A stretch of DNA of 62,677 bases from IMG/VR virus record IMGVR_UViG_3300021962_000101, positions 1-62,677 of that record; one strand, given 5' to 3'. The position numbers and the translations under genes are program-made. This stretch comes from a virus. Below the pieces are notes generated by a model, which worked only from the letters and a program-made list of their open reading frames with translations, made no database searches and was not told where the DNA came from. Position 1 is the first letter of the stretch. Every line of letters starts with the position of its first letter. This document shows, one piece after another, positions 22,833-41,509 of this stretch.

Positions 22833-22838
22833 TCATTA

Positions 22839-28812: not shown

Positions 28813-29061
28813 TTAGAAACTACCACCATTAACTGAAACTACTGTGGCGGTAACTGTATTGGCTACAAACTTACCTGTTGCAGAATCAAATTGAAGGACT
28901 TGTTTATCTTGAACACCAGAAACATTAATATCATTCAACTCAGTTAATGATACGTTTGGTTTAGGTGCAAAATTCTGTGCAGCAATCGTTGACCGAGTTT
29001 GCTGAGTTAACTTTACTTGGCCAATAGTACCACTTGAATTTATTCTAGCATTGACTGCCAT
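28813..29061 (-). CDS. Small fibre-associated protein (82 aa)
   Basis: The sequence begins MAVNARINSSGTIGQVKLTQ and contains VSLTELNDINVSGVQDKQVL with VLQFDSATGKFVAN. The LNDINVSGVQDKQVL type of motif is common in short fibre-linking domains of phages, where it usually forms a trimeric beta segment. It overlaps the 110-residue gene by one base and is followed by a late promoter for the next gene. It may be a connector between baseplate and fibre; this is inference. Confidence 0.55.
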   Translation of the reverse strand: MAVNARINSSGTIGQVKLTQQTRSTIAAQNFAPKPNVSLTELNDINVSGVQDKQVLQFDSATGKFVANTVTATVVSVNGGSF

Positions 29062-29393
29062 TATTGCGTAACTCCTGGCGATATTACAATAATTCCTTCA
29101 ACAACTCTTGTTTTTACAGAAGATGGTGAGGTGATAAGCAAATCAAAAACTTGCCGGCCAGGTGTCAAATTAGCAGTATTAGCTGCTGTCATAGAAAGAG
29201 TAATTTCACCATTAGCATTGCCTGTAATGGTTGAAGTAATTATTGTGTTTGATGTAGCGTAATAAGATTTACGCATTTGAGAAGATGCTGAATAACCATA
29301 TAAGTTTATAGCAGCACCAGCGGTATCTTCTACATTAACTGTGGTTGAAAATGTTGCACCTTGTTCAATTAACAATTCTGTGAATGCTGCCAC
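29061..29393 (-). CDS. Small beta-sandwich virion-type protein, GTG start (110 aa)
   Basis: Translation is placed at GTG 29393, preceded by a strong AAGGAG site six bases upstream; no ATG lies nearby in frame. The protein reads as an immunoglobulin-like beta sandwich: LLIEQGATFSTTVNVEDTAG, then MRKSYYATSNTIITSTI and GRQVFDLLITSPS. It resembles N-terminal domains of lactococcal-type BppU baseplate proteins in this strand pattern, which is a weak resemblance. It opens a short late transcript with the 82-residue gene. Confidence 0.6.
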   Translation of the reverse strand: MAAFTELLIEQGATFSTTVNVEDTAGAAINLYGYSASSQMRKSYYATSNTIITSTITGNANGEITLSMTAANTANLTPGRQVFDLLITSPSSVKTRVVEGIIVISPGVTQ

Positions 29394-29424: not shown

Positions 29425-29445
29425 CCAATTGATTACTATGTTACC

Positions 29446-29473: not shown

Positions 29474-29492
29474 CTTTAGAATATATTATTGT

Positions 29493-30446
29493 TTAGTTGA
29501 CAAAGTAACCTGTGTTATTAGCACTAAAAGTGCCATCACCAAGAAAGGTATGTATAGAATATCCACCAGACGAGGAGTAATTACCACCACCAGCAGCTTG
29601 AGAACCTGTATAACGAATGATTACGATACCTGAGCCGCCGGCACCACCATTAACACCAGCATTACCATCACCGCCACCGCCACCACCTGTATTTGGAGTT
29701 GCATTTCCTCCAGCGCCTACACCACCAGTACCAGCGCCTCCGCCTCCAGTGCCTCCAGCAAATGGGCCATTGTTTTGTTGACCGCCGCCGCCTCCACCAG
29801 CATATGTTACTGGTGAACCAGAATATGGTGATGCAACACCATTACCACCAGTACCAGCAACCGAGCTTGGATGACTGCCGCTGCCATTTCCTCCAACAGC
29901 ACCTGCGCCGCCACCTCCACCTCCACCATAGGCGGGTGCGGGGTTGCAAACGCCTCCATTGCTACCTTGGCTTGGGCTTGTAGATGGAGTATTTCCTGCG
30001 CCTCCAGAACCGGATGTTGTTCCTGCCGCTGAATCAGCCGCACTGCCCCCACCAGACCCGCCACTTGCGCCACTTAAAATAGCAGAAGATGCAGTTGAAA
30101 TTGATGACCCGCCACCGCCACCACCAGTAGATGTGATGGTAGAAAAAACGGAATCATTGCCGTTTGTGCCTCTCGCTGTTGTAACTGTTGAACCTGGACC
30201 ACCACCACCAACAGTTACAGCGTATGGCGTTCCTTGTGTTATAGAAAATCCTGTGCCTGTTCTAAAACCGCCTGCTCCGCCGCCACCGCCACGCTGTCTA
30301 CCTCCACCTCCGCCACCAGCTACAACAAGATAGTCTACTGAAAGTGATAAAGGAACACCAGTTGTTAATCCCACAGGAAATGCATATCCTTGCGGTCTAA
30401 GAAACGCACCTATTGTTGTTTTACCTGCTGTGTATGAAGCGCCCAT
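29493..30446 (-). CDS. Glycine-rich adhesin-like protein, copy 1 (317 aa)
   Basis: One of seven paralogues in this region. After about 15 variable residues comes the shared signature RPQGYAFPVGL, then DYLVVAGGGGGG and GAGGFRTGTGFSITQGTPYA. The middle (about 70-265) is mostly Gly, Ser and Ala with short variable loops, including the shared block ASPYSGSPVTYAGGGGGG near 203-220. The end is SGIVIIRYTGSQAAGGGNYS with SIHTFLGDGTF. The pattern of glycine runs separated by variable loops recalls the polyglycine-II sandwich of the phage S16 receptor-binding protein gp38; this is an inference from composition. It is the last gene before a terminator. Confidence 0.72.
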   Translation of the reverse strand: MGASYTAGKTTIGAFLRPQGYAFPVGLTTGVPLSLSVDYLVVAGGGGGGRQRGGGGGAGGFRTGTGFSITQGTPYAVTVGGGGPGSTVTTARGTNGNDSVFSTITSTGGGGGGSSISTASSAILSGASGGSGGGSAADSAAGTTSGSGGAGNTPSTSPSQGSNGGVCNPAPAYGGGGGGGAGAVGGNGSGSHPSSVAGTGGNGVASPYSGSPVTYAGGGGGGQQNNGPFAGGTGGGGAGTGGVGAGGNATPNTGGGGGGDGNAGVNGGAGGSGIVIIRYTGSQAAGGGNYSSSGGYSIHTFLGDGTFSANNTGYFVN

Positions 30447-30455
30447 AATTATCTC

Positions 30456-31430
30456 TTAATTAACACTATATGTTCCGTTTGCTCTAAACGTGCCATCACC
30501 AAGGAATGTATGTATAGAATATGCAAAAGGAGATGGATAAGAATAGTTTCCACCAGCTGCAGTTTGAGCACCTGCATATCGAAGAATTACAATACCAGAA
30601 CCACCACCTGCACCATTCCATGATGCAACGAAAGACCCTGAATTTCCATCTGATGCACCACCGCCACCACCGCCGGTGTTAGGAGTTCCAGCACCAGCAA
30701 CTGTACTTGAAAAACTTCCTGCGCCGCCACCACCAAGACCTCCAGGAGTGGCACTTCCACCTGTACTATGACTGCCACCAGAACCACCGCCAGCATAATT
30801 TACTGGTGAACCTGATAAAGGTGACGCACTACCAGCACCACCAGCACCACCAGTAGGTTGCAATGGAGAACCAGTTGGAGGATTACCGCCAGCACCTGCG
30901 CCACCGCCGCCGGCACCACCTCTTCCAGGAGATGGATTACCTGGCATACTACCACCAGCATTTCCTTGACTTGGACTTGTCGATGGAATATTACCTGAAC
31001 CACCTGTGTATGCATTTCCATTTGATTGGCCTGCACCACCCCCACTACCACCATCAAGGCCATTTGCAAGTGTGGGACCATATGAACCACCACCGCCACC
31101 ACCAGCAGAAGATATTGTAGAGAAAGTAGTGTTTGACCCTTGACTGCCTCTGACAAAAGATGGAGTTGATGTTGCTGGACCACCGGCACCTACTGTAACA
31201 GCATATGATGTTCCACCCAACACAACAAAACCTGAACCTGTTCTAAAACCACCTGCACCACCTCCACCACCATTTGCACTTCCACTACTTCCACCGCCAC
31301 CTCCACCACCAACGACAAGATAATCAAGAGATAGTGTTCCTGCTATATTTAATCCTGTTGGGAATGAATATCCCTGCGGCCTTAAAAAATAAGAACCAGT
31401 CGCAGGTTTGTTGATATATTTTATACCCAT
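30456..31430 (-). CDS. Glycine-rich adhesin-like protein, copy 2 (324 aa)
   Basis: Same layout as copy 1: variable N-terminus, RPQGYSFPTGL, DYLVVGGGGGGG, and a long glycine-rich body with its own loops (PPTGSPLQPTGGAGG, SFVASWNGAGG). The middle node has diverged to ASPLSGSPVNYAGGGSGG. The last 60 residues carry YAGAQTAAGGNYSYPSPFAY in place of the SSSGGY ending, a variant shared only with copy 3; the DNA encoding it is identical over 80 bases. It starts 9 bases after copy 3 with little spacing, so the three genes read as one transcript. Confidence 0.72.
   Translation of the reverse strand: MGIKYINKPATGSYFLRPQGYSFPTGLNIAGTLSLDYLVVGGGGGGGSSGSANGGGGGAGGFRTGSGFVVLGGTSYAVTVGAGGPATSTPSFVRGSQGSNTTFSTISSAGGGGGGSYGPTLANGLDGGSGGGAGQSNGNAYTGGSGNIPSTSPSQGNAGGSMPGNPSPGRGGAGGGGAGAGGNPPTGSPLQPTGGAGGAGSASPLSGSPVNYAGGGSGGSHSTGGSATPGGLGGGGAGSFSSTVAGAGTPNTGGGGGGASDGNSGSFVASWNGAGGGSGIVILRYAGAQTAAGGNYSYPSPFAYSIHTFLGDGTFRANGTYSVN
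30504..30583. repeat. 80-base perfect direct repeat, copy A (partner 31491-31570)
   Basis: The 80 bases are identical to 31491-31570, in the same orientation and reading frame, and encode the conserved C-terminal segment of two glycine-rich proteins. Bases on both sides differ at once. Confidence 0.95.
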
Positions 31431-31439
31431 AATTATTTT

Positions 31440-32351
31440 TTAGTTGACAGCGTATAATAAAGTATTACTTGTGAATGTACCATCACCAGTGAATGTATGT
31501 ATAGAATATGCAAAAGGAGATGGATAAGAATAGTTTCCACCAGCTGCAGTTTGAGCACCTGCATATCGAATGATTACAATACCAGAACCACCAGTTCCTC
31601 CAGAGTTTGCACCAAAACCTGATCCTCCAGCTCCACCACCAGAATTTGGTGAACCATTACTACCTCCTGATGGATAACCACCGGCACCTCCAACACCTGA
31701 ACCGCCTGTACCTGGTGTTTGACTTAAATCACTCCTAGCACCACCTCCACCACCACCAGCATATGTTACTGGTGTACCAGAATATGGTGATGCTGTTCCT
31801 GAACCACCGTTACCAGTAGTGGTTCCTGATGCGTTTCCACCAGAACCGCCAGCTCCACCACCACCACCTGCAGCGGCACCTGTTCCGTTTGTACCGCCAT
31901 TATTTCCTTGACTTGGAGTAGCAGAACCACCACTCGCACTTACACTATCGGAAGCAGAACCGGCGCCGCCGCCTGAACCACCATTTAATCCTGCTCTATT
32001 TTGATTTGATCCGCCACCTCCGCCACCAACAGAAGTTATACTAGAAAATATAGAATTTGATCCATTCGAAGCTTTTTGGGAGGTCGACGCTGATCCTGGT
32101 CCACCACCACCAACAGTTACGGTGTATGGTGTTCCCGTTGTTATAGAAAATCCTGTTCCAGTTAAAAATCCACCAGCGCCGCCTCCACCACCATTACCGT
32201 TACCTCCCCCACCACCTCCAGCGACTACAAGATAATCTACTGAAGTTGGACCTGCCGCAACAAGTATAGTTAATCCCACAGGAAATGCATATCCCTGCGG
32301 TCTGAGTAGTCTACCATTTGTTTGTTTGGCATTAAAATATCTTACGCCCAT
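31440..32351 (-). CDS. Glycine-rich adhesin-like protein, copy 3 (303 aa)
   Basis: The protein has RPQGYAFPVGL, DYLVVAGGGGGG and AGGFLTGTGFSITTGTPYTV near the start, and the YAGAQTAAGGNYSYPSPFAY ending near the C-terminus. It is a mosaic: its C-terminal coding DNA matches copy 2 over 80 bases, while the DNA for its FSITTGTPYT region matches copy 4 over 80 bases. The glycine-rich centre includes NQNRAGLNGGSGGGAGSASD, unlike either neighbour. This supports recombination between the paralogues. Confidence 0.72.
   Translation of the reverse strand: MGVRYFNAKQTNGRLLRPQGYAFPVGLTILVAAGPTSVDYLVVAGGGGGGNGNGGGGGAGGFLTGTGFSITTGTPYTVTVGGGGPGSASTSQKASNGSNSIFSSITSVGGGGGGSNQNRAGLNGGSGGGAGSASDSVSASGGSATPSQGNNGGTNGTGAAAGGGGGAGGSGGNASGTTTGNGGSGTASPYSGTPVTYAGGGGGGARSDLSQTPGTGGSGVGGAGGYPSGGSNGSPNSGGGAGGSGFGANSGGTGGSGIVIIRYAGAQTAAGGNYSYPSPFAYSIHTFTGDGTFTSNTLLYAVN
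31491..31570. repeat. 80-base perfect direct repeat, copy B (partner 30504-30583)
   Basis: Partner of the tract at 30504-30583, 987 bases away. Synonymous sites are also identical, which points to recent gene conversion or duplication rather than protein selection alone. Confidence 0.95.
32095..32174. repeat. 80-base perfect direct repeat, copy A (partner 34362-34441)
   Basis: Identical to 34362-34441 with the same frame; encodes the FSITTGTPYTVTVGGGGPG region of copies 3 and 4 of the glycine-rich family. Confidence 0.95.
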
Positions 32352-32361
32352 TTTAATGCCT

Positions 32362-32700
32362 TTAAGAAACTTCTACGCCAAATGCCGATATGGAAATAGA
32401 AGATGTGCTTGCATTGGCAGCAAAGACTGTGCCAGCAGGCAAATTGAGGTTAAGGTCGATGATTGCAGTATCACTTGCAGGAGCTAAACCACCACGAACA
32501 ACGAAATATGTGTTTGCGGCTGGTGAAGCAAAGTTGGCAGCTGGCATCACAATTAAACTGTAAGATGCATTAGTTGTTGATTGATTTGCGATTGTAATAG
32601 TTTCAATAATTCCAGCTGAAGCTGCCGGCACAACATACACATTACCTTGTGTATTAGCTGTTGGATTTAATTGACCTAAAATTTTATATGCGTTTGCCAT
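32362..32700 (-). CDS. Cap-type beta module protein, copy 1 (112 aa)
   Basis: Member of a family of five stand-alone proteins here, all about 108-115 residues. The pattern is: YKILGQLNPTANTQGNVYVV, PAAS-x(4)-IETITIANQST, SYSLIVMPAANF, YFVVRGGLAPASDTAII and an ending SISISAFGVEVS. It is predicted all-beta and without signal sequence. The same module forms the C-terminal domain of the adjacent 311-residue fibre protein, which suggests that the stand-alone copies act with shaft proteins as caps or connectors. It overlaps that gene's stop by one base. Confidence 0.65.
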   Translation of the reverse strand: MANAYKILGQLNPTANTQGNVYVVPAASAGIIETITIANQSTTNASYSLIVMPAANFASPAANTYFVVRGGLAPASDTAIIDLNLNLPAGTVFAANASTSSISISAFGVEVS

Positions 32701-33635
32701 TATACGATTTCAACTCCATATGCGTGAACTGATATGCCTGCAGCAGAAGCGGCTGCATTGCCACCAGTTGTGTTGGCAGCTAAAATAGCACCAGTATTTA
32801 ATGATACACCACTATCTATGATGAGTGTATCCGCAGCTGGCAGTGTGATGCCTTTAACAATATAATGTTTTGCAGCTAAAGCTTCAGTAGATGGTCTTGA
32901 TATCAAATCTAATAGAACATCGTTTGCTGTGCCATTACAAACTGTGATTGTACCGATTGAAGCTGATGTTGCAGCTGGTACAACATATACGTTGGCAATT
33001 GAATTTGCCGTTGTTACAATTTGACCTAAAATTTTGTAACCAGTTATTACTGAACCAGTTAATGAAACTGCTAAGCCTGAACCTGTTACGGCAAAAGAAC
33101 CGTTTGATGTGGCATTGTTTGCCTTAGCAAATGCTGAGTTGGCATATGTACCAACATTCGTAATATTTGTATTTTGTGTAGTATCAATACCATTACTTAA
33201 ATTTGCAGAGATAAAAGCTGCATTGGCATAACTTGCCGCTGAGTTAGCAACCGCAAATCCTGAGTTAGCATATGATGCTGCTGAGCCACCAGTATTAGCC
33301 GCAGTAAATGCAGAATTGATATATGAGTAAGTATCGTTAGATAGTTTGAGTAATGTAACTGAACCGTCCGATGGAACTTGAACAGCAGAACCATTACCTA
33401 GATGTAGAACAACAATGTTACCTGTGCCAGCTGTTGGTGCTGAACTGAATGTAAGAGTAACACCATTTAATGTGTATGCAGAAGGCGGTTGATATACACC
33501 AGCAATGAAAACAGCAATTGATGCAGTACCAGCAGGAGCTCTTGTTAGTGGAGTAAATGCCGTTTGAGCGCCAGTACCAGAAAAGATATCTGTGATAAAC
33601 GGTATTGATGTTACCTGATTTCCAATATATGACAT
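32700..33635 (-). CDS. Fibre protein fusing anchor, heptad shaft and cap module (311 aa)
   Basis: Three parts are visible. Residues 1-100 are a fibre anchor (MSYIGNQVTSIPFITDIF, SIAVFIAGVYQPPSAYTL, LTFSSAPTAGTGNIVVLHLG). Residues about 105-178 are Ala-Asn-Ser heptads. Residues about 195-311 are a complete cap module (YKILGQIVTTANSIANVYVV to ISVHAYGVEIV) that elsewhere in this region is a separate gene. The fusion links shaft and cap functionally. It heads the third adhesin cassette; no Shine-Dalgarno site precedes it, but a late octamer lies 7 bases before the ATG. Confidence 0.75.
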   Translation of the reverse strand: MSYIGNQVTSIPFITDIFSGTGAQTAFTPLTRAPAGTASIAVFIAGVYQPPSAYTLNGVTLTFSSAPTAGTGNIVVLHLGNGSAVQVPSDGSVTLLKLSNDTYSYINSAFTAANTGGSAASYANSGFAVANSAASYANAAFISANLSNGIDTTQNTNITNVGTYANSAFAKANNATSNGSFAVTGSGLAVSLTGSVITGYKILGQIVTTANSIANVYVVPAATSASIGTITVCNGTANDVLLDLISRPSTEALAAKHYIVKGITLPAADTLIIDSGVSLNTGAILAANTTGGNAAASAAGISVHAYGVEIV

Positions 33636-33642
33636 AATTGAT

Positions 33643-33650
33643 TATTTATT
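33643..33650 (-). promoter_or_regulatory. Late-promoter-like octamer AATAAATA, 7 bases before the fusion fibre gene
   Basis: It lies in a short non-coding gap with no ribosome-binding site, so the octamer is not explained by coding constraint. Confidence 0.55.
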
Positions 33651-33655
33651 CTGTT

Positions 33656-34636
33656 TTAATTGATGTTATAAGTGGCAGCTATGAATGTATTGGATGTAAA
33701 TGATCCACTACCAGTGAATGTATGTATTGAATAACCACCAGATGATGAATAGTTTCCACCAGCAGCACCTTGACTACCAGTATAACGAATGATTACAATA
33801 CCAGAACCGCCGGCACCGCCAGTTTTTCCTATACTACCATCAAAATTTCCACCGCCACCTCCACCACCCGTGTTAGTAGTTCCTGCAACACCAGTTGCGC
33901 TACCGCCGGATCCGTTACCACCACTTACCCCTGGAGTTCCTGGACCACCAAGACAAACACCACCACCAGTTCCATTTCCTGCACCACCGCCACCAGCATA
34001 TGTTACTGGTGAACCAGAATAAGGTGATGCAGTACCAAGGCCGCCAGTGCCCGTTGCTGGATATCCAGAACTATATGCTCCTCCAGAACTACCAGCTCCA
34101 CCGGCACCGCCACCACCACCGCCTGTTGCATTAGATCCTAAACCTGGAGATGAAGCTGAACCGCCATTATTTCCTTGACCTGGAGTTCCTGATCCGCCTG
34201 CGCCCGAGTTAGCACCGCCACCAGAACCCCCAGCACGACCAGTGCCCACACTTGAAGGTGGAGTTTCACCGCCGCCACCACCGCCACCAGTGGCTGTTAT
34301 AGATGGACCAAATATTGAATTACCTCCATCGCCACCTTGACCTGGACTAACATAAGCATTACCTGGTCCACCACCACCAACAGTTACGGTGTATGGTGTT
34401 CCCGTTGTTATAGAAAATCCTGTTCCAGTTAAAAATCCACCGGCACCGCCGCCGCCAGCATATCGACTACCTCCACCGCCACCACCAGCGACTACAAGAT
34501 AATCTACTGAAGTTGGTCCTGCAGCTTGGCCAGCAACAGTTTGTGTTAGTCCAACTGGAAAAGCATAACCATCTGGTCTAACACCTTTTTTATTGACTGA
34601 TGTAAAAGTTAATAAATTTGCTGAACGAACTGCCAT
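33656..34636 (-). CDS. Glycine-rich adhesin-like protein, copy 4 (326 aa)
   Basis: It has a longer N-terminus (MAVRSANLLTFTSVNKKG) before RPDGYAFPVGL, then DYLVVAGGGGGG, FSITTGTPYTVTVGGGGPG and the ASPYSGSPVTYAGGGG node. The C-terminus is SGIVIIRYTGSQGAAGGNYS with SIHTFTGSGSF. Its loops include ETPPSSVGTGRAGG and GGVCLGGPGTPG. It is the only glycine-rich gene in the middle cassette. The start overlaps the stop of the cap gene by one base, indicating coupled translation. Confidence 0.72.
   Translation of the reverse strand: MAVRSANLLTFTSVNKKGVRPDGYAFPVGLTQTVAGQAAGPTSVDYLVVAGGGGGGSRYAGGGGAGGFLTGTGFSITTGTPYTVTVGGGGPGNAYVSPGQGGDGGNSIFGPSITATGGGGGGGETPPSSVGTGRAGGSGGGANSGAGGSGTPGQGNNGGSASSPGLGSNATGGGGGGAGGAGSSGGAYSSGYPATGTGGLGTASPYSGSPVTYAGGGGAGNGTGGGVCLGGPGTPGVSGGNGSGGSATGVAGTTNTGGGGGGGNFDGSIGKTGGAGGSGIVIIRYTGSQGAAGGNYSSSGGYSIHTFTGSGSFTSNTFIAATYNIN
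34362..34441. repeat. 80-base perfect direct repeat, copy B (partner 32095-32174)
   Basis: Partner of 32095-32174, 2267 bases away, with two unrelated fibre genes in between. Confidence 0.95.
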
Positions 34637-34974
34637 TATGTAATCTCTGAACCAAAAGCTGCGATTGAAATTGATGCTGAACTTGCATTTGCTGCAAGCA
34701 CCATACCTGCATTAGCGGTCAGACCTAATGTAAGAACAATTGTGTCTGCGGCAGGTACAGTTGCACCACGAACAATAAATGTTGCTGCTGGTGCTGAAGC
34801 ATTAAATTCTGAATTGTTCATCAAAGCTAAACTGTAAGAAGCATTAGATGCTGTTTGATTACAAATTGTAATTGATGAAAATACTGTTGAAGTTGCTGCT
34901 GGCACAACATACACATTTGTCTGCGTATTTGCAGATGGGTTGATTGCGCCTAATCGTTTATATGTTTGTGCCAT
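34636..34974 (-). CDS. Cap-type beta module protein, copy 2 (112 aa)
   Basis: Same pattern as the other cap proteins: YKRLGAINPSANTQTNVYVV, PAATSTVFSSITICNQTAS, SYSLALMNNSEF, FIVRGATVPAADTIVLTLGL and the ending SISIAAFGSEIT. It lies between a 99-residue shaft protein and glycine-rich copy 4, sharing one base with the latter. The repeated order shaft, cap, glycine-rich protein supports a common complex. Confidence 0.65.
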   Translation of the reverse strand: MAQTYKRLGAINPSANTQTNVYVVPAATSTVFSSITICNQTASNASYSLALMNNSEFNASAPAATFIVRGATVPAADTIVLTLGLTANAGMVLAANASSASISIAAFGSEIT

Positions 34975-34980
34975 ATGTTT

Positions 34981-35280
34981 TTACATTCCTGATAACATGA
35001 AAATGTTTGGTATTGAAGTTGTTGCCGTGTTAGCGGTTGAAAATCCTGAGTTAGCATAACTTGCCGCTGAGTTAGCTACTGCAAAACCTGAGTTAGCATA
35101 AGATGCTGATGAATTGGCAACTGCAAATCCTGAGTTAGCATATGCAGCTGCTGAATTTGCGATTGCAGTAGGCAACAGACCACTTTGCAACTTTGCTAAG
35201 GTAATTGTATTGTCTGCAATGTCAGCAGCAACAACTGTGCCGTCTGCGATTGAATCTGCGTTTACTTTATTGAGTGCCAT
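34981..35280 (-). CDS. Short heptad shaft protein (99 aa)
   Basis: The first 40 residues (NADSIADGTVVAADIADNTI, LAKLQSG) are a common fibre linker with a TI-x-LAKL turn, followed by six Ala-Asn-Ser heptads (about 43-88) and a hydrophobic end (IPNIFMLSGM). It is much shorter than the other shafts and has no cap of its own, but the cap gene follows 6 bases later. It has no Shine-Dalgarno site; a late octamer lies 7 bases upstream in non-coding DNA. Confidence 0.65.
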   Translation of the reverse strand: MALNKVNADSIADGTVVAADIADNTITLAKLQSGLLPTAIANSAAAYANSGFAVANSSASYANSGFAVANSAASYANSGFSTANTATTSIPNIFMLSGM

Positions 35281-35287
35281 AGTGGTC

Positions 35288-35295
35288 TATTTATT
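35288..35295 (-). promoter_or_regulatory. Late-promoter-like octamer AATAAATA, 7 bases before the 99-aa shaft gene
   Basis: It is in a 27-base non-coding gap and would start an almost leaderless transcript of the middle cassette. Confidence 0.55.
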
Positions 35296-35307
35296 CTATT
35301 TTTCTAA

Positions 35308-35715
35308 TTAATCTTTTGTTGGTGCTGGGCCTTCAGATTTAGGAAACTTTTCTTTAACTTCTTTAATCGTATTAAACCACTCTGAATTTTTCAATTCAAC
35401 ACCTTCATTGATAGCGTGCCACAACATATCAAGTTGTTCAAACCCATCAGGGTAATGACGGCACCTATCGTATGCATACTGATAATGTTTTGCCAATTTT
35501 TCTTGGAAAACAATTTCTTCATCAATCTCAGCTTTTGTTGGTGCTGATAAACCATCAGGGTGATACCACTTATGATAAGTAACAACACCACCAGACATTG
35601 CAATTTCAAAAGTGCAACCAGGTCTTAAAGCCTTAATTGCAGTATCAATTCCTACCGGCATTCCATTCTCAGCTGAAAAGTTTTTCATCACATCACTTGC
35701 GTTATTTAAATCCAT
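35308..35715 (-). CDS. XkdW-like or fibre-assembly-type protein (135 aa)
   Basis: The middle has VTYHKWYHPDGLSAPTKAEI and the C-terminal half has YAYDRCRHYPDGFEQLDMLW followed by EWFNTIKEVKEKFPK. The R-x(2)-YP-x(3)-EQLDMLW pattern is typical of small proteins encoded beside phage fibres (XkdW or fibre-assembly type). It may help fold or attach the surrounding fibre proteins. It is soluble, with no signal or membrane segment, and lies 16 bases after the 131-residue gene. Confidence 0.6.
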   Translation of the reverse strand: MDLNNASDVMKNFSAENGMPVGIDTAIKALRPGCTFEIAMSGGVVTYHKWYHPDGLSAPTKAEIDEEIVFQEKLAKHYQYAYDRCRHYPDGFEQLDMLWHAINEGVELKNSEWFNTIKEVKEKFPKSEGPAPTKD

Positions 35716-35731
35716 TTTATACTCCTAATAA

Positions 35732-36127
35732 TTAAATTGTCATTTCAACATGACTTAATGTTGCTTCATCCCAACGATACATCTTAGGTGGATTTCCTGT
35801 GCCAGCATCAGCTGGCATATCAACGGGTGCTTTCCATTGGCAAGTTTCTTCAACTAATACCCATGATGGATATGGTTTAGGTGCAATGAAAGCATCACGA
35901 CCCGCATCGTATGTCATACCAATACCGGCATAATTTTTACGAATGTTATTGTTGTAACTTGTTTGTTTCCAATAAACATCATCATGCACACCATGAACAC
36001 CTTCAAGGTATGTGATGCCTATTGCTTCTACTTCTTTGCCTGTGCCATCAACGCAGTTCCAGTTATCAACAACGGATACATGAAGAACTTCGTTTGTAGC
36101 TTTATTAATTTTTGCGAAATGTGCCAT
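35732..36127 (-). CDS. Conserved fibre-region protein of aquatic T4-like phages (131 aa)
   Basis: The start is placed at ATG 36127 (MAHFAKINKATNEVL) because GGAGG lies nine bases upstream; an in-frame ATG 15 bases earlier has no site. The body has YWKQTSYNNNIRKNYAGIGM, TYDAGRDAFIAPKPYPSWVL and a CQWKAPVDMP ending region, a pattern I recognise from many marine myoviruses in which the RKN(Y/F)AGIG and PYPSW motifs are conserved. No function is known to me. Its place next to an XkdW-like gene inside the fibre cluster suggests an assembly or structural role. Confidence 0.65.
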   Translation of the reverse strand: MAHFAKINKATNEVLHVSVVDNWNCVDGTGKEVEAIGITYLEGVHGVHDDVYWKQTSYNNNIRKNYAGIGMTYDAGRDAFIAPKPYPSWVLVEETCQWKAPVDMPADAGTGNPPKMYRWDEATLSHVEMTI

Positions 36128-36163
36128 TTTTTTAACCTCCAAAATAGTATAAAATGATACTTA

Positions 36164-36171
36164 TATTTATG
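36164..36171 (-). promoter_or_regulatory. Late promoter CATAAATA for the 131-aa and 135-aa genes
   Basis: It lies in the gap after glycine-rich copy 5, 36 bases before the chosen start, with GGAGG in the leader. Confidence 0.75.
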
Positions 36172-36204
36172 CTATTCTTATTGTGATATTATTTTTTTTA
36201 CCTA

Positions 36205-37113
36205 TTAATCTATGATGTAACCCGTTGTGTTAGCACTAAAGGCTGAATCACCGGTGAATCTATGTATAGAGTATCCACCTGATGATGAATAATTTCCACC
36301 AGCAGCTGCTTGAGCACCAAGATAACGAATGATTACAACACCTGAACCACCTGAACCAGAAGAACCAGTAACGCCAGAAGCATCACTACCACAACCACCA
36401 CCTCCACTTCCAGTATTATTTGGAGCTGAACCTGCATTTCCAGTTTGAGCACTACCTGCACCTCCACCGCCCGATCCACCAGGAGCTTGCACAGGAGTAT
36501 TGTATCCCCCACCACCACCGCCGCCAGCATATGTTACTGGTGAACCTGAATATGGTGATGCAGTACCATTACCACCAGCGCCACCTTGATATGGAGTCCC
36601 CGCAGGACCGTCTTGACCTACTGCACCAGAACCTCCGCCGCCACCCGAGCGAAATCCACCAGCAGTACCACCAGCATTACCTTGACCTGGAGTTCCTGGC
36701 CCACCAGCATTAGTTGACGCTGAACCTCCACCACCTGAACCACCAGAAAATCCTACACCGTTATTACGACCGCCGCCACCACCAACAGCTGTTAATGATG
36801 AAAAAACTGAATTTGATCCATTACTACCGCTACTGCTTGCAGCACCACCTGGACCTCCAGCACCTACTGTAATAGAATAAGATGTTCCTTGTGTTACAGA
36901 AAACCCTGCACCAGTTAAGAAACCACCTGCACCGCCACCACCGGCAGCTTGATTTGCTCCAGCAGCTAAATCTCTTCCACCACCACCTCCACCAGCGACA
37001 ACAAGATAATCAACCAATAAATTACCACCACTAGTTAGTCCTGTTGGAAACGTGTATCCACTTGGTCTCACAAGAGCAAAATTCTTAGAAGCTTTTAAAA
37101 ATTCAATTCCCAT
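36205..37113 (-). CDS. Glycine-rich adhesin-like protein, copy 5 (302 aa)
   Basis: It carries RPSGYTFPTGL, DYLVVAGGGGGG, AGGFLTGAGFSVTQGTSYSI and the ASPYSGSPVTYAGGGGGG node; the end reads SGVVIIRYLGAQAAAGGNYS with SIHRFTGDSAF and finishes in Asp rather than Asn. Loops such as LAAGANQAAGG and QDGPAGTPYQGG are private to this copy. It is the last glycine-rich gene of the first cassette, followed by a 60-base gap with a late promoter for the next genes. Confidence 0.72.
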   Translation of the reverse strand: MGIEFLKASKNFALVRPSGYTFPTGLTSGGNLLVDYLVVAGGGGGGRDLAAGANQAAGGGGAGGFLTGAGFSVTQGTSYSITVGAGGPGGAASSSGSNGSNSVFSSLTAVGGGGGRNNGVGFSGGSGGGGSASTNAGGPGTPGQGNAGGTAGGFRSGGGGGSGAVGQDGPAGTPYQGGAGGNGTASPYSGSPVTYAGGGGGGGYNTPVQAPGGSGGGGAGSAQTGNAGSAPNNTGSGGGGCGSDASGVTGSSGSGGSGVVIIRYLGAQAAAGGNYSSSGGYSIHRFTGDSAFSANTTGYIID

Positions 37114-37121
37114 TTTGTTCT

Positions 37122-38045
37122 TTAATTTACGATGTACGTTGTTGGGCCAGAGTTAGCACTAAAAGTACCATCACCATTGAATGTATGTATAGAGTAACCA
37201 CCACTTGAACTATAATTTCCACCTGCAGCTGCTTGAGTTCCAAGATAGCGAATGATTACAATTCCTGAACCACCAGCAGCAGCACCAGTATTAACACCGC
37301 CGCCTCCAGCACCACCGCCAGTATTGGTTGAACCACCACCACCATTACCAGGACCGCCACCACCTGGAGCAGTTGCTGGAGATGATACTTGAAAATTTCC
37401 ACCCGTACCAGCTGGTGTGCCAGTAACAGGATAACCGCCACCGCCACCGCCACCAGCATATGTTACTGGTGTACCACTCAATGGTGATGCTAAACCAGAA
37501 CCACCGTCACCTCCTCTATTTTGACCTGGTGTTCCACCACTACCAACAGAGCCAGCCCCACCGCCACCTCCGCCACCAACAGCAGGATTAAGTGGAGATA
37601 TTTGAGCACCATTATTTCCTTGACCTGGAGTTCCAAGTCCAAAACCATTTTGTTGTCTTGCGCCACCACCAGAACCACCGTCTGCATATGGAGTTACAGA
37701 ACCACCGCCACCACGGCCACCACCAATAGCAACTATAGCTGGACCGAATATTGAATTTGATCCATTAGCAGCAGGTGTACCAGGATATCCACCACCTGAA
37801 CCACCACCACCTACTGTAACAGTTCTAGATGTTCCTGTTGTCATCGTGGCACCAGATGCAGTTAAAAAACCACCAGCACCAGCACCGCCACCCAAATTTT
37901 CACCGCCACCACCACCACCTGCAACTACAAGATAATCAATTGTTAAATCAGCAGGAAAACCACCTAAACCGGTTGGAAAATTATATCCACTCGGCCTAAT
38001 TAATTTGCCAACTTTATTTGCTTTTATAAATTTAATTGCTGACAT
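37122..38045 (-). CDS. Glycine-rich adhesin-like protein, copy 6 (307 aa)
   Basis: The order is RPSGYNFPTGL, DYLVVAGGGGGG, AGGFLTASGATMTTGTSRTV, the node ASPLSGTPVTYAGGGGGG, and SGIVIIRYLGTQAAAGGNYS with SIHTFNGDGTF. The AGATMTTGTSR segment replaces the TGFSIT strand of most copies. It is packed 2 bases from copy 7 and 8 from copy 5, so the three are probably translated from one message. Confidence 0.72.
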   Translation of the reverse strand: MSAIKFIKANKVGKLIRPSGYNFPTGLGGFPADLTIDYLVVAGGGGGGENLGGGAGAGGFLTASGATMTTGTSRTVTVGGGGSGGGYPGTPAANGSNSIFGPAIVAIGGGRGGGGSVTPYADGGSGGGARQQNGFGLGTPGQGNNGAQISPLNPAVGGGGGGGAGSVGSGGTPGQNRGGDGGSGLASPLSGTPVTYAGGGGGGGYPVTGTPAGTGGNFQVSSPATAPGGGGPGNGGGGSTNTGGGAGGGGVNTGAAAGGSGIVIIRYLGTQAAAGGNYSSSGGYSIHTFNGDGTFSANSGPTTYIVN

Positions 38046-38047
38046 TT

Positions 38048-38983
38048 TTAATTGATAAGATAATTCGTTAAGTTGGAACGGAAAGTTCCATCACCAGTAA
38101 AAGTATGTATTGATGTTGCACCAGGAGCTGGATTAGAATAATTACCACCAGCAGCTGCTTGAGCACCAGAATAACGAATGATTACAATACCTGAGCCACC
38201 GTTACCACCTGAACCTGTTTGGCCACCACCTTGACCGCCAGCGTCACCACCAGTGCCAGTATTAGCTGGGCCTGCACCACCGTCAGAACCACCTGGAGGT
38301 CTTGCTACGTTTTCTCCGCCATTTCCACCAGTTGAATATGTTACTGGACTACCTGAGTATGGCGATGCAGTACCTGATCCTGCGCCACCTTTACCACCAG
38401 GATTTCCACCTCTACTAGCACCTGCACCACCAGAACCTCCACCACCAGCACCAAGTGTTTGTCCTGCACCACCATCAGTTCCTTGACCTGGTGTTCCAAG
38501 TCCACCAGAACCACCCACTGCACCGCCGCCACCTGAACCACCGTTATAACCACCCGGTGTTGCAGGTGTTGCTGTTGGTCCTGAAGGATTTCCTGAACCA
38601 CCTCCACCACCAGCAATTGCAGTCAATGAAGAAAATACACTATTAAATCCGTTAGCACCATGTGTTCCAGGAGCTGGAGAACCAGATAAACTTCCCACAT
38701 TAGGACCACCTGCGCCACCTGCACCTACTGTAATAGAATAAGAAGTGCCTCTTGCAATTGCAAATGATGTACCAGTTAAAAATCCACCTGCACCTCCACC
38801 GCCGCCACCACCAGCATTATATACACCGCTGCCGGCACCACCAGCGCCAGCGATTACAAGATAATCAACAGATGTTGGGCCATTATCATTATCTCCAGCA
38901 TTAGTGATTCCGGTTGGAAATGCGTATCCACTAGGTCTTACAAAAGAACCAGTTGGAGAAGTTTTTAGAAATAGTATCGACAT
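38048..38983 (-). CDS. Glycine-rich adhesin-like protein, copy 7 (311 aa)
   Basis: It has RPSGYAFPTGI, then SVDYLVIAGAGGAG with an unusual SGVYNAGGGGGGGAGG run, FAIARGTSYSITVGAGGAGG, and a node that has changed to ASPYSGSPVTYSTGGNGG. The end is SGIVIIRYSGAQAAAGGNYS with PAPGATSIHTF. It is the most divergent of the seven. It follows two cap genes and starts the glycine-rich run of the first cassette. Confidence 0.72.
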   Translation of the reverse strand: MSILFLKTSPTGSFVRPSGYAFPTGITNAGDNDNGPTSVDYLVIAGAGGAGSGVYNAGGGGGGGAGGFLTGTSFAIARGTSYSITVGAGGAGGPNVGSLSGSPAPGTHGANGFNSVFSSLTAIAGGGGGSGNPSGPTATPATPGGYNGGSGGGGAVGGSGGLGTPGQGTDGGAGQTLGAGGGGSGGAGASRGGNPGGKGGAGSGTASPYSGSPVTYSTGGNGGENVARPPGGSDGGAGPANTGTGGDAGGQGGGQTGSGGNGGSGIVIIRYSGAQAAAGGNYSNPAPGATSIHTFTGDGTFRSNLTNYLIN

Positions 38984-38999
38984 ATCACCTCAGATAAAC

Positions 39000-39341
39000 T
39001 TAGGTGATTTCAACACCGAACGCTTGAAAAGAGATACTCGCTGAGTTTGTGTTTGCGGCTAATACTGCACCAGCAGGTAATGATAAACTCAAAGTAAGTG
39101 TCGCAGCGTCTGATGCTGGTATCGTGCTACCACGAATAATAAAATACATTCCATTAGAAGCTGGACTTGCAAAGTTAGCAGATGGCATCACAATCAAACT
39201 ATATGAAGCATTTGATGCTGATTGATTTGCAATCTGAACTGAATTAATTACTGACGAAGTTGCAGCAGGAACCACATACACATTACTTTGTGTATTTGCG
39301 GATGGGTTTACTTGACCAAGAATTTTATAGGTATTAGGCAT
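39000..39341 (-). CDS. Cap-type beta module protein, copy 3 (113 aa)
   Basis: It reads YKILGQVNPSANTQSNVYVV, PAATSSVINSVQIANQSAS, SYSLIVMPSANF, YFIIRGSTIPASDAATLTLS and ends SISFQAFGVEIT. It is closest in sequence to cap copies 1 and 2. It shares one base with the next cap gene (copy 4), giving a tandem pair unique to the first cassette. Confidence 0.65.
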   Translation of the reverse strand: MPNTYKILGQVNPSANTQSNVYVVPAATSSVINSVQIANQSASNASYSLIVMPSANFASPASNGMYFIIRGSTIPASDAATLTLSLSLPAGAVLAANTNSASISFQAFGVEIT

Positions 39342-39688
39342 TATGTTAACTCTACTCCAAATACGTTGAACGATACGTTAGCAGCAGTTTCACCTGAAAC
39401 AACAGCATTATTTACTGCAACAATGACCGATGCATTTAATGTAACACCTGGTGACAAAATCATTGTGTCTGCTCTAGGAATCGTAACACCTTTTATCATA
39501 TAATGTTTGTTTGCTAATGTTTCATTGATTGGTCTAATCATAATATCTACGTTAGCATTAGCTGAACTTTGATTACAAATAGTAATTGTGCTAATGATTG
39601 CAGATGTTGCTGCAGGAACCACATACACATTACTTAGTGTGTTTGCAGTTGGTAATGTTTGACCTAAAATTTTATATGCTGTTGGCAT
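39341..39688 (-). CDS. Cap-type beta module protein, copy 4 (115 aa)
   Basis: It reads YKILGQTLPTANTLSNVYVV, PAATSAIISTITICNQSSA, IMIRPINETLANKHYMIKGV, TIPRADTMILSPGV and ends NVSFNVFGVELT. The RPINETLANKHYMIKGVTIP stretch is closest to the fused cap domain of the 311-residue fibre protein (RPSTEALAAKHYIVKGITLP), so two subtypes of the module exist and both occur in this cluster. Confidence 0.65.
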   Translation of the reverse strand: MPTAYKILGQTLPTANTLSNVYVVPAATSAIISTITICNQSSANANVDIMIRPINETLANKHYMIKGVTIPRADTMILSPGVTLNASVIVAVNNAVVSGETAANVSFNVFGVELT

Positions 39689-40389
39689 TATGACCCCATT
39701 GCTGTAAAGAAAAACGGATGAGCATCCACACCCGTTACCACTTGTGTTGTTACTGTATTAATTCTACCATTTGCAGAAACAGTAATGATTGGATAATAGG
39801 CTGAATTGCCGTATGTACCAGTAGTAATGTTTATATTAGTAACATCGGTGTTTGCTTGAGCAAAAGCACCGTTAGCATAAACTGCAGCAGAACCACCAGT
39901 ATTAGCAGCTGCAAAAGCAGAGTTTGCATACGATGCGGCACCGATGACGTTGTTTGCTTGACCGAAAGCCGCATTGGCATAACTTGCCGCTGAGTTGGCT
40001 ACTGCAAAAGAACTGTTAGCATAAGTTGCCGCTGAATTAGCTGCAGCAGAAGGTAAAACACCAGAAGCTAACTTAGATGCAGTAATTGTACCATCTGGTA
40101 TTTGTGAATTCAGTAAATTGTTATATGTAATTATCGTTGTTGCACGATATGTAACAATAATGTTATTTGCGCCAGAAGAAGGTGCCTCAGTAAATGTGAT
40201 TACACCATTGGCAACAGAATATGAATTTATTGGATCCTGTTGAATACTATTAACAAGAACCTCAATCGCATTTGGGTCTTGAATGCCTGTTTGTGTTAAC
40301 GAAAATTGTGTGCAAGAACCCGTACCGTTGAACCTTTCGGTTGAAACAATAAAAGAACCTACACCAGGCTGGTTGCCAAGGTATGACAT
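39688..40389 (-). CDS. Fibre shaft protein with anchor and heptads (233 aa)
   Basis: The start is placed at ATG 40389 (MSYLGNQPGVGSF), which follows GGAG by eleven bases and lies two bases past the upstream stop; an earlier in-frame ATG lies inside the upstream gene. Residues 1-100 are a fibre anchor similar to that of the 311-residue protein (NGTGSCTQFSLTQTG, AIEVLVNSIQQDP, VITFTEAPSSGANNIIVTY). Ala-Asn-Ser heptads span about 120-185. The C-terminus carries YGNSAYYPIITVSANGRI. It heads the first adhesin cassette; its cap is a separate gene just after. Confidence 0.72.
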   Translation of the reverse strand: MSYLGNQPGVGSFIVSTERFNGTGSCTQFSLTQTGIQDPNAIEVLVNSIQQDPINSYSVANGVITFTEAPSSGANNIIVTYRATTIITYNNLLNSQIPDGTITASKLASGVLPSAAANSAATYANSSFAVANSAASYANAAFGQANNVIGAASYANSAFAAANTGGSAAVYANGAFAQANTDVTNINITTGTYGNSAYYPIITVSANGRINTVTTQVVTGVDAHPFFFTAMGS

Positions 40390-40390
40390 A

Positions 40391-40717
40391 TTATGTAATC
40401 TCCAAAACCGATACAATCACATCAGCAGAATTTGTTGCAGATGTTTGTACTTGCATATAATCTCCAGCTTCCATAACAAGTTTTTGGTCACCACCAATTG
40501 GTACTAATGCGCCACCATTAGAGATAGTCGCATTTTGTAGCATGAAATATGTTGTACCACCAGAAACAACAGTTACATTACAACTAATTGGTGATGAAGT
40601 TGTGTTACCAATCGTCATACCAATAATTGTGGACTGTGTTGCTGTTGGGCCAACATACGCATTAGCTGCAGTAGTGCTAGCGTTTTTCAAAAAATAATTT
40701 TTAAAATTGTTTGCCAT
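40391..40717 (-). CDS. Cap-type beta module protein, divergent copy 5 (108 aa)
   Basis: It is a distant member of the cap family, with YFLKNASTTAANAYVGPTAT, STIIGMTIGNTTSSPISCNV, YFMLQNATISNGGALVPIGG and an ending VIVSVLEIT. The size and strand order match but most family residues are changed. It is the first gene of a late transcript (TATAAATA 28 bases upstream and an AAGGAA site), directly ahead of the first adhesin cassette. Confidence 0.6.
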   Translation of the reverse strand: MANNFKNYFLKNASTTAANAYVGPTATQSTIIGMTIGNTTSSPISCNVTVVSGGTTYFMLQNATISNGGALVPIGGDQKLVMEAGDYMQVQTSATNSADVIVSVLEIT

Positions 40718-40744
40718 TGAATAAATTCCTTAGTATTAATTCAC

Positions 40745-40752: not shown

Positions 40753-41283
40753 TTAACCTAATGCAATAGAAAAGGCCAAAGCCGATGCCTCAGCACTTTC
40801 GATTCTAGTGTATATTGCAGTATTTGAACTACCCACTAAAGAAGAAACATTAGCGGTTCCAAAATTGCCGTAATTTGTGGTAGAATTACTTAGTGTTGTA
40901 TTTCCAGTAACAGATAGTGTGTTGGCTACGGTTATAGAACCGTTGACCATCATATCATCAAAACCAATGGAATCTAAAGTAATGTTTCCAGAAACAGTCA
41001 AGTTTCCAGAGATAAGAACGTCACCACCAAAATATCCATTCGAAGTAACATTTAGAGTTGAAATGTTACCACTTACATTAATGTTATTTGCATAGAGAGT
41101 ATTAATGCCCGCACTATTACGGACATTTAATTGAGAACCAGTACCAGAAACATCTAGTTTTGTATTGGCAACAAATACAGCACCGTTACCATCAGTTAAT
41201 GTGTTGGCAGTTGAAATTAAAGCTTGAGTGGCCGTTAACCAATGTTGGAACGTATTAGCGGTTGTTAATTGATTAATTGCCAT
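40753..41283 (-). CDS. Short tail-fibre-like protein, beta-repeat (176 aa)
   Basis: The body is a series of beta turns with alternating pattern (NVSGNISTLNVTSNGYFGGD, VLISGNLTVSGNITLDSIGF, SITVANTLSVTGNTTLSNS), typical of a trimeric triple-beta shaft. The N-terminus is polar and the end (SAEASALAFSIALG) resembles the AIAFAIALG end of the 618-residue fibre protein. It overlaps the coiled-coil gene by 11 bases. It is probably a short fibre or spike attached near the baseplate. Confidence 0.65.
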   Translation of the reverse strand: MAINQLTTANTFQHWLTATQALISTANTLTDGNGAVFVANTKLDVSGTGSQLNVRNSAGINTLYANNINVSGNISTLNVTSNGYFGGDVLISGNLTVSGNITLDSIGFDDMMVNGSITVANTLSVTGNTTLSNSTTNYGNFGTANVSSLVGSSNTAIYTRIESAEASALAFSIALG

Positions 41284-41509
41284 CTCTGAACCTTGAGTTT
41301 GCTATGTTTTGCAATAAATTTTTAATTTCTGACATATCTTGTTCTATTTTTGCCAATCGATTTTGAGTTTCAGATTGTTCTTCTTTTTGCTTTTTGGCAA
41401 TCTCTCTCTTACGAAGATAATCTTGCAAACCTTCTTTATCTGTATTTAGAACAGCTTTAGAATTCATATCCCTAACTAGATTATCATGTTCTTTTACTTT
41501 TGCATACAT
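41273..41509 (-). CDS. Small coiled-coil protein (78 aa)
   Basis: The protein is almost wholly helical and charged (LQDYLRKREIAKKQKEEQ, RLAKIEQDMSEIKNLLQNIA), with a clear heptad pattern in the second half. It lies between the giant baseplate-region gene and the short fibre gene, overlapping the latter by 11 bases. An AGGA site lies within the end of the upstream gene. The role is unknown; a trimerising connector is possible. Confidence 0.6.
   Translation of the reverse strand: MYAKVKEHDNLVRDMNSKAVLNTDKEGLQDYLRKREIAKKQKEEQSETQNRLAKIEQDMSEIKNLLQNIANSRFRDGN

What the first reader, a model, noticed from the sequence alone, without database searches (positions are those of the whole stretch)
29493..40717. 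Three successive shaft-cap-adhesin cassettes form a modular adhesin array
Read in the direction of transcription, the genes repeat one order three times. Cassette 1: shaft (40389), two caps (39688, 39341), three glycine-rich proteins. Cassette 2: short shaft (35280), cap (34974), one glycine-rich protein. Cassette 3: shaft fused to cap (33635), cap (32700), three glycine-rich proteins. The families are recognisable by eye, with seven glycine-rich paralogues and five stand-alone cap modules plus one fused. Established: T4-like phages normally carry one adhesin (gp38 type) per long fibre. Inference: here a set of interchangeable receptor-binding parts is displayed at once or exchanged by recombination. 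I do not know of such a cassette array being described.
Basis: partly seen in the sequence, partly recalled or inferred. Interest (0 to 1): 0.88.

Follow-up and report, generated by a model that had tools for sequence, protein, structure and literature searches.

The report
Modular phage fibre array, swappable tips
A T4-like phage carries three successive sets of fibre parts (shaft, one or two small caps, one to three glycine-rich tips), and related phages show that the tips are replaced wholesale while the caps and the short starting ends of the tips stay recognisable.

Summary
Genes 40389 to 29493 (minus strand) repeat shaft > cap(s) > glycine-rich protein three times, and relatives use the same order with other cassette numbers. 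The array lies in the known 'host recognition cluster' between VrlC and the neck genes of pelagi-/cyanomyophage relatives. (2) Predicted folds: the cap is a jelly roll; the tip matches the receptor-binding end of the Pam3 fibre, with a disordered N-terminal head. (3) A head tag (RPxGYxFPxGL) marks 28 of 32 glycine-rich genes directly behind a cap. (4) Heads and caps are conserved between phages while tip bodies are not: in contigs L022/L025, DNA identity falls from 97-100% before the tips to 42-78% across both. (5) Cultured phages Melnitz and Melnitz-3 share one shaft end but carry unrelated tips on it. (6) Cassette types sit in different slots in different phages. Exchange is well supported; display together in one virion, and cap-tip binding, are untested. 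The best structural comparison is Pam3 gp24 rather than gp38. New variant of a known kind.

The parts
41512..47454 (-). VrlC-like baseplate protein bordering the cluster (anchor used to collect relatives)
   Evidence: phrog_358/877, Pfam DUF4815; tblastn hits annotated VrlC in cyano- and pelagiphages
41273..41509 (-). small conserved virion protein N41
   Evidence: phrog_473; follows the anchor in most relatives printed
40753..41283 (-). N40, fibre-like protein upstream of c0
   Evidence: no PHROG match, weak Pfam only; upstream neighbour of c0-typed caps in 53 of 59 junctions
40391..40717 (-). c0, remote cap paralogue, conserved in place
   Evidence: phrog_1276 E 4e-7; its own part of the cap tree; a cap lies within 2.2 kb of the anchor's end in 55 of 60 loci
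39688..40389 (-). shaft 1 (starts MSYLGN; connector domain; YAN-type repeats)
   Evidence: phrog_18673 tail fiber, E 4e-4
39341..39688 (-). cap alpha, cassette 1
   Evidence: cap tree; one-base overlap with the next cap
39000..39341 (-). cap beta, cassette 1
   Evidence: AF2 model pLDDT 90.3; cap tree
38048..38983 (-). G1 glycine-rich tip
   Evidence: head 78% to L007 G1, body 33%, glycine pairs left out
37122..38045 (-). G2 glycine-rich tip
   Evidence: head 92% to L007 G2, body 37%
36205..37113 (-). G3 glycine-rich tip
   Evidence: Gly_rich_2 E 5e-26; AF2 pLDDT 89.2, first 26 residues low confidence; head 87% to L007 G3, body 33%
35732..36142 (-). small protein of phrog_7759 (ATG at 36127 more likely than TTG 36142); function unknown
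   Evidence: this family or that of 35308 follows a tagged tip in 13 of 44 junctions, 19 of the rest being another tip (the label pools both families)
35308..35715 (-). small protein of phrog_9114; possible assembly factor (inference only)
   Evidence: no convincing solved relative
34981..35280 (-). shaft 2, short, starts MALNKVNADS and lacks the MSYLGN start
   Evidence: similar starts precede alpha caps in L007 and L016-L018
34636..34974 (-). cap beta, cassette 2 (beta-C type)
   Evidence: groups with first-slot caps of other phages
33656..34636 (-). G4 glycine-rich tip
   Evidence: shares 149 of 164 bases with G5 across cassettes
32700..33635 (-). shaft 3 fused to cap alpha
   Evidence: phrog_18673 E 1e-10; cap part found; clade of fused alpha caps, support 0.979
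32362..32700 (-). cap beta, cassette 3
31440..32351 (-). G5 glycine-rich tip
30456..31430 (-). G6 glycine-rich tip
   Evidence: 3' part 95% identical to G5 over 120 nt
29493..30446 (-). G7 glycine-rich tip
   Evidence: Gly_rich_2 E 7.5e-18
29061..29393 (-). small protein beyond the array, related to L-shaped-fibre assembly proteins
   Evidence: phrog_1084 (unknown) E 3e-25 and phrog_3304 E 2e-20
21942..23795 (-). neck genes (head closure Hc2, adaptor Ad2), other border of the cluster

Best explanation
The array encodes several short trimeric receptor-binding fibres, built from parts. Each cassette gives a shaft (most begin with a Y-I/L-G end that may be a common dock), one or two jelly-roll caps (alpha next to the shaft, beta beyond it), and one to three Pam3-type glycine-rich receptor-binding tips. 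A tip attaches to the cap through its short disordered head (slot-specific residues plus RPxGYxFPxGL). Caps and heads are the conserved holder; the tip body with its variable loops is the exchangeable bit. Phages swap tip bodies, shaft, alpha and beta-tip units and cassettes with each other, and copy stretches between their own tips, by ordinary recombination. Shown: gene order, cap types, head-body split, replacement, slot changes. Inferred: trimers, cap-to-head docking, receptor binding, presence in virions.
For: Junctions: alpha to beta overlap by one base in 8 of 8, beta to first tagged tip median overlap one base, n 26. Alpha is fused behind three kinds of shaft start: shaft-3 type (window), shaft-1 type (L009, L011, L014) and shaft-2 type (L007, L016-L018); a glycine-rich tip is fused directly to a shaft in cultured Melnitz. 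Such fusions put cap and tip at the distal end of shafts. Folds. Head-body split: window vs L007 slot-matched heads 78/92/87%, mismatched 43-62%; bodies 33/37/33% matched, 29-47% mismatched. Cap and head identity correlate, 0.30, 0 of 2000 shuffles; body 0.09, 488 of 2000; tail 0.13, 320 of 2000. Replacement. Slot changes. In ten-residue bins of the body, six with entropy 2.2 or more (from 91, 131, 171, 201, 221, 241) alternate with more conserved bins, which recalls the six loops of Pam3 gp24 (PMC9608196, passages).
Against: Within-genome shuffles support cap-head matching only moderately (59 of 2000). The tag is not universal: of 32 glycine-rich genes directly behind a cap, 28 have it, L016 and L023 have variants, L060 and Melnitz L030 lack it. 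On new contigs, caps 36-47% identical to the query are followed by untagged genes in L135, L148, L150, L151, L153, L155, and several remote caps have no glycine-rich gene next to them. So tag and cap may simply be inherited together. Melnitz variants that differ in this region had identical host ranges on a small panel (PMC9004378, passages). Pam3 gp24 needs a chaperone; none was identified here. The shared shaft start is partly by construction, as the shaft profile was built from two window shafts.
Confidence: 0.6

Rival explanations
1. Alternatives, not partners: the two or three tips of a cassette compete for the same cap, so one genotype makes virions with mixed tips (bet-hedging), or one is used and the rest are a reservoir for recombination.
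For: One to three complete tagged tips per cassette; bodies and 3' parts of tips are more alike within a genome than between genomes (0 of 1000 shuffles each), as expected for a pool that exchanges stretches.
Against: Heads are not homogenised within a genome (152 of 1000), and same-position heads are slightly more alike across genomes (53 and 48 of 2000 shuffles), which suggests that heads are kept different for a reason such as different docking sites.
Confidence: 0.35
2. Expendable accretion: a hypervariable island collects fibre genes, many of them cryptic; the order is a trace of shared ancestry and the tag a family signature without a docking role.
For: 17 of 27 loci with at least 9 kb beyond the anchor show no tagged cassette there; host ranges of the Melnitz variants were the same (PMC9004378, passages); tag absent beside remote caps.
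Against: All seven tips and all caps of the window are open and tightly packed, several overlapping the next gene by one base; the two cassette-1 caps stay about 82-97% identical in DNA between window and L007 while the tips do not.
Confidence: 0.15
3. Programmed diversification: an invertase or a diversity-generating reverse transcriptase switches the tips.
For: Tandem tip paralogues resemble switchable fibre loci; an Mtd-like N-terminal domain in a nearby fibre gene.
Against: No inverted repeat pair of 24 nt or more in 28700-41600; no RVT_1, resolvase or integrase match in the 135.9 kb contig with the same array, though each control rang in some named genomes. That contig may be incomplete and shorter repeats were not examined.
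Confidence: 0.03

Closest known systems
Host recognition cluster of pelagimyophages and cyanomyophages (PMC7029224)
   Same: Same place, between VrlC and the neck gene; hypervariable; carries tail-fibre genes (passages).
   Different: In the passages seen no shaft-cap-tip order, cap family or head-body split is described; 'glycine' occurs 0 times in the main text.
Pam3 gp24 tail fibre (PDB 7YPX, 7YFW; PMC9608196)
   Different: gp24 is a one-protein trimeric fibre with its own helical baseplate dock; G has a short disordered head instead and seven copies.
Mycobacteriophage Bxb1 tail-tip protein (PDB 9D93, chain Q)
   Same: Best Z of all, 14.2, rmsd 3.2 over 175 residues.
   Different: Its paper was not found in the library search (listing only), so role and arrangement were not compared.
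gp38 adhesins of T2/S16/PP01-type phages
   Same: Separate glycine-rich tip protein with hypervariable loops; the gp38 N-terminus must match gp37, as a T2-PP01 chimera showed (PMC12892980, passages).
   Different: One tip protein on the gp37 trimer; in S16 ten glycine-rich motifs in three layers on a beta-helix domain, against twelve in four layers in Pam3 (PMC9608196, passages); no caps in series that I know of (recalled); no gp38 entry among the fold matches.
Hafunavirus glycine-rich adhesins (PMC8651126)
   Same: Glycine-rich adhesin in a hypervariable region, linked to host range (passages).
   Different: One adhesin gene plus one small gene; no cassettes in the passages seen.
Methylophilales phages Melnitz and Melnitz-3 (MZ577097, MZ577098)
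   Same: Same position; in Melnitz, shafts, cap and glycine-rich tips recur, the first two tips each followed by a small gene labelled with the 35732/35308 families.
   Different: These tips lack the tag; one tip is fused to its shaft; mostly annotated hypothetical.

Membership tests
[quoted passage not shown]
   VrlC-like 41512-47454 and Hc2/Ad2 neck genes 21942-23795; the array lies between
Host recognition cluster (pelagi-/cyanomyophage) | Hypervariable between relatives, with fibre genes | tested here: met
   Gene strings differ between loci; PHROG tail-fiber matches
Pam3 gp24-type fibre tip | TNF-like plus glycine-rich receptor-binding fold | tested here: met
   Predicted model: Z 13.9, 171 residues aligned; next unrelated rows Z 5.5 (20 chains compared)
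Pam3 gp24-type fibre tip | N-terminal helical domain docking to the baseplate | tested here: not met
   First 26 residues of low confidence; no helix of 4 or more residues listed in the model
Pam3 gp24-type fibre tip | Homotrimer assembled by a TFA-type chaperone | not testable with these tools
   No complex prediction offered; neighbours 35308 and 35732 have no convincing solved relative
gp38 adhesin (T2/S16/PP01) | Polyglycine sandwich with hypervariable loops | tested here: inconclusive
   Variable and more conserved blocks alternate, but no gp38 entry among the 20 chains compared and no PDB sequence match at E 0.01
gp38 adhesin (T2/S16/PP01) | Binds the gp37 trimer tip through its N-terminus | not testable with these tools
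   Analogy only: head covaries with cap
Diversity-generating retroelement | Reverse transcriptase | tested here: inconclusive
   No RVT_1 match in the 135.9 kb contig of L006, which may be incomplete
Invertase-switched fibre locus | Site-specific recombinase and inverted repeats | tested here: inconclusive
   No resolvase or integrase match in that contig; 0 inverted repeat pairs of 24 nt or more in 28700-41600

The most novel reading that the evidence does not exclude
Heads are addresses: each glycine-rich tip carries a short N-terminal code that sends it to its own site on the cap stack, so one fibre displays two or three different receptor-binding tips at once. Bodies are exchanged between phages and slots while the address stays, giving the virus a plug-in system with several sockets per fibre and several fibres per virion.
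Probability: 0.28. Interest if true: 0.85.

Novelty: new variant of a known kind. Interest (0 to 1): 0.64.

Why it matters
Phage host range is usually pictured as one adhesin per fibre that mutates or is swapped. Here holder and tip are separate genes, the joints stay recognisable and the tips are exchanged, in relatives of cultured phages of streamlined aquatic bacteria. If the docking rule is right, it shows how a hypervariable host recognition cluster can turn over without breaking the fibre, offers a natural standard joint between holder and tip, and makes it testable whether one virion shows several tips.

Tried and rejected
DGR or invertase switching: no enzyme or long inverted repeat found. 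Recent tandem duplication of one cassette: unlikely, since each window beta cap is closer to a cap of another phage (93, 82 and 77%) than to its siblings (54-65%). Tag fused to other folds: not found; all 69 unique tag-bearing proteins in the loci then held are glycine-rich. Long near-identical stretches between tips of different phages: none among the 44 tagged tips; the 3 matches of at least 100 nt and 86% are all inside one genome, and that search did not list the G4-G5 stretch. Solved relatives by sequence: none convincing for caps, tips or the two small genes. Annotated phages: no megablast match; cap tblastn hit 2 unannotated records of one name at 41%; a tip gave nothing, perhaps because of the low-complexity filter. 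Cap relatives in bacterial and archaeal genomes: none for one cap, so no host hint. TATAAATA lies at 40745-40752 before c0, but 6 copies in the window equal chance (6.35). gp38 is absent from the fold lists; that is no evidence against kinship.

Limits: duplicate or near-identical contigs were dropped by hand (lists in the scripts); some close relatives remain. Cap typing is a rough pattern that mistyped at least two caps as c0 and fused alpha caps as beta; the tree is the better guide. Searches used only complete stand-alone tips of 230-420 aa (74, of which 66 unique). Glycine above 22% defined a tip. Cap and shaft profiles were grown from window sequences. Most loci end 9-12 kb beyond the anchor, so cassette counts in relatives are lower bounds. 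On recount I changed: 66 unique tips (not 65); the identity course in L022/L025; the shaft type in L009, L011 and L014; membership rows for DGR and invertase from not met to inconclusive. Confidence went from 0.62 to 0.60 because the L022/L025 flank behind the tips is less clean than I first wrote.
Full report
What was checked. The window is a fragment of a T4-like myovirus: portal, major head protein, sheath, terminase, baseplate wedge genes. In the direction of transcription the order is N41, N40, c0 | shaft, cap, cap, G, G, G | two small genes | shaft, cap, G | shaft-cap, cap, G, G, G | small assembly-like genes and long fibre genes | neck genes. A 20 kb stretch (L006) of a 135.9 kb contig has the same gene string and lengths.

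Position. The gene upstream is VrlC-like and the genes downstream are head-closure and adaptor proteins. This is the 'host recognition cluster' described for pelagimyophages and cyanomyophages as a hypervariable island between VrlC and gp14 (PMC7029224, passages). The location is known; the inner grammar needed work. Literature: in ten searches of the open-access library I saw no listed title or abstract start that describes a shaft-cap-glycine-rich cassette array. Some lists were cut (one search listed 12 of 500, 15 of 19, 12 of 16), one search found no paper, and most subscription papers are not held. So absence from print is not established.

Relatives. One cap gave 24 loci; the C-terminal part of the VrlC-like protein gave the best 80 of 132 relatives, chosen without regard to the array. 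Of 60 loci (hand de-duplicated) with at least 1.5 kb beyond that gene, 55 have a cap within 2.2 kb. Of 27 with at least 9 kb beyond it, runs of tagged tips number 0 in 17, 1 in 5, 2 in 2 and 3 in 3 (window, L015, L077); 19 of 27 have some glycine-rich gene. Most of these loci end 9-12 kb beyond the anchor, so the counts are lower bounds. Other loci carry different fibre modules at the same site.

Grammar. In 81 loci the upstream neighbour of a tagged tip is a cap in 28, another tagged tip in 19, something else in 1 of 48 cases. Alpha caps overlap the following beta cap by one base in 8 of 8; beta caps and first tips have a median overlap of one base (n 26). Of 83 shaft-labelled genes, 76 have a Y-I/L-G motif in the first 45 residues, a candidate common dock; but the shaft profile was built from two window shafts, so this is partly by construction, and shaft 2 of the window lacks it.

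Cap types. A tree of 110 cap domains separates c0, alpha and several beta types. The fused cap of cassette 3 is an alpha cap; it falls in one clade (0.979) with other alpha caps that are part of longer ORFs. Those have different starts: shaft-1 type in L009, L011, L014 and shaft-2 type in L007, L016-L018. Cassettes 1 and 3 thus share the plan shaft-alpha-beta-tips. Types move between slots: the beta type of window cassette 2 sits in the first slot of L055, L053, L025, L041, L015, L024 and L019 and in a third cap-tip unit of L077; another beta type is first in L077, L073 and L046 but second in L015. In L009, L011 and L014 a cassette-1 type shaft start is followed by the cassette-3 type alpha cap and a cassette-1 type beta cap, so units also separate within a cassette. 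One alpha and one beta type travel together in L015, L019 and L077.

Folds. Cap beta: AlphaFold2 mean pLDDT 90.3, pTM 0.79, eight strands. Foldseek puts jelly-roll capsid proteins on top (a metagenomic phage capsid protein 4E27/4DMI, satellite tobacco mosaic virus; E about 0.001) and lists a Bdellovibrio fibre end (8OK3, E 0.01, rank 36); the aligner's best rows are a nucleoplasmin-like domain (7VMF, Z 9.6) and the trimeric cement protein of phage KHP40 (7DOU, Z 9.6). These only slightly exceed what unrelated small folds reach, so the class is clear and the relative is not. Tip G3: mean pLDDT 89.2, pTM 0.85; the first 26 residues are of low confidence. Matches: Bxb1 tail tip (Z 14.2) and Pam3 fibre (Z 13.9), next the ALK/LTK glycine-rich domain (Z 5.5); among viral models, many glycine-rich proteins of uncultured tailed phages, Synechococcus phage Bellamy, HTVC025P and S-TIM4. 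In Pam3 this part is the proposed receptor-binding end of a trimeric fibre (PMC9608196, passages).

Head, body, tail. Of 66 unique complete stand-alone tips, 44 come after a cap and carry the tag, 1 comes after a cap without it (L060), 21 have neither, 0 have the tag without a cap; tagged tips end in hydrophobic-N/D in 43 of 44, untagged in 0 of 22. Counting every glycine-rich gene directly behind a cap, 28 of 32 have the tag; L016 and L023 have variants of it, L060 and the shaft-tip fusion of Melnitz lack it. Out of sample, 23 loci on contigs not used before (identities): tips behind caps 45-65% identical to the query carry the tag in L124, L125, L127, L131, L133, L134 (same sequence as L133), L136 and L138 (two of three in L125 deviate at the last tag residue), but not in L135 (47%); L126 is cut off. 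More remote caps (36-41%) have an untagged glycine-rich gene next in L148, L150, L151, L153, L155, and none directly next in L137, L149, L152, L154, L156-L159. So the tag belongs to the closer clade and cap-tip adjacency reaches further, but not everywhere.

Conserved heads, replaced bodies. With glycine pairs left out, heads of window G1, G2, G3 match L007 G1, G2, G3 at 78, 92, 87% (mismatched 43-62%), bodies 33, 37, 33% (mismatched 29-47%), tails 65, 62, 68% (mismatched 58-87%); L010 has the same three heads, the second and third in swapped order. Across 25 cassettes of 17 genomes, cap identity correlates with head identity (0.30; 0 of 2000 shuffles) but not with body (488 of 2000) or tail (320 of 2000); shuffling only within genomes leaves 59 of 2000. 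Bodies (0.33 vs 0.30) and tails (0.64 vs 0.53) are more alike within a genome than between, 0 of 1000 shuffles each; heads are not (152 of 1000); same-position heads are slightly more alike across genomes (53 and 48 of 2000). Near-identical 120-127 nt 3' stretches are shared by tips of one genome, twice across cassettes (L019, L007) and once within one (window); G4 and G5 of the window share 149 of 164 bases across cassettes 2 and 3.

Replacement. L022 and L025 are mostly 97-100% identical in DNA over the baseplate gene, late shaft and cap (N40 to early shaft 73-98%, single 60-nt windows down to 85% in the cap and 80% at its end), then 42-78% through G1 and G2; about 60 nt behind G2 are again near-identical, after which the next genes vary (54-98%) and diverge. 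The drop starts within the first tens of bases of G1. Window against L007: cap genes about 82-97%, tips mostly 45-85%, and the genes behind cassette 1 again 82-98%. In the cultured pair Melnitz and Melnitz-3, first shaft, first tip, small gene, second shaft and second cap are identical proteins; the next gene keeps its first ~90 residues nearly unchanged and then switches from a glycine-rich tip to an unrelated one, and a glycine-rich protein appears further downstream in Melnitz-3; further on two stretches of 1.2-1.4 kb are again 98.6 and 100% identical. The Melnitz paper reports a variant differing in this part of the genome, and identical host ranges for all four on a small panel (PMC9004378, passages); whether that variant is the record compared here was not verified.

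Judgement. Exchange of modular receptor-binding-type parts is well supported by sequence. That the tips bind receptors rests on fold, position and variability. Docking of heads to caps is an inference with moderate statistical support and a precedent in gp38-gp37 matching (PMC12892980, passages). Simultaneous display is open: distinct heads against homogenised tails leans towards different docking sites, but competition for one site is not excluded.

Noticed in passing
window 23799-25655: A 618-aa fibre gene has an Mtd N-terminal domain (Pfam Mtd_N) and many of the YAN-type repeats of the array shafts; 27104-28747 (547 aa) has 13 more.
   Followed up: no
window 35732-36142 and 35308-35715: Two small families (phrog_7759, phrog_9114) recur behind tips in relatives, for example in L015 and Melnitz. 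Candidate assembly factors; no convincing solved relative.
   Followed up: partly
L030 31127-32341 vs L160 26127-27002: Cultured Melnitz and Melnitz-3 share a shaft end but carry unrelated tips, a natural tip swap in phages recorded from the same host strain.
   Followed up: yes
L124 6339 and 9996; L138 6339 and 9985: Tagged tips of 566-617 aa, about twice the usual length, with a different stretch right after the tag.
   Followed up: no
L036, L040, L087, L070 just after c0: Phages with related baseplate genes have a long shaft (425-622 aa) and other proteins instead of cap-tip cassettes at the same site.
   Followed up: no
window 40745-40752: The T4-type late promoter sequence TATAAATA (motif recalled) sits just before c0 on the coding strand; all six copies in the window are on that strand, though their number equals chance.
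   Followed up: partly
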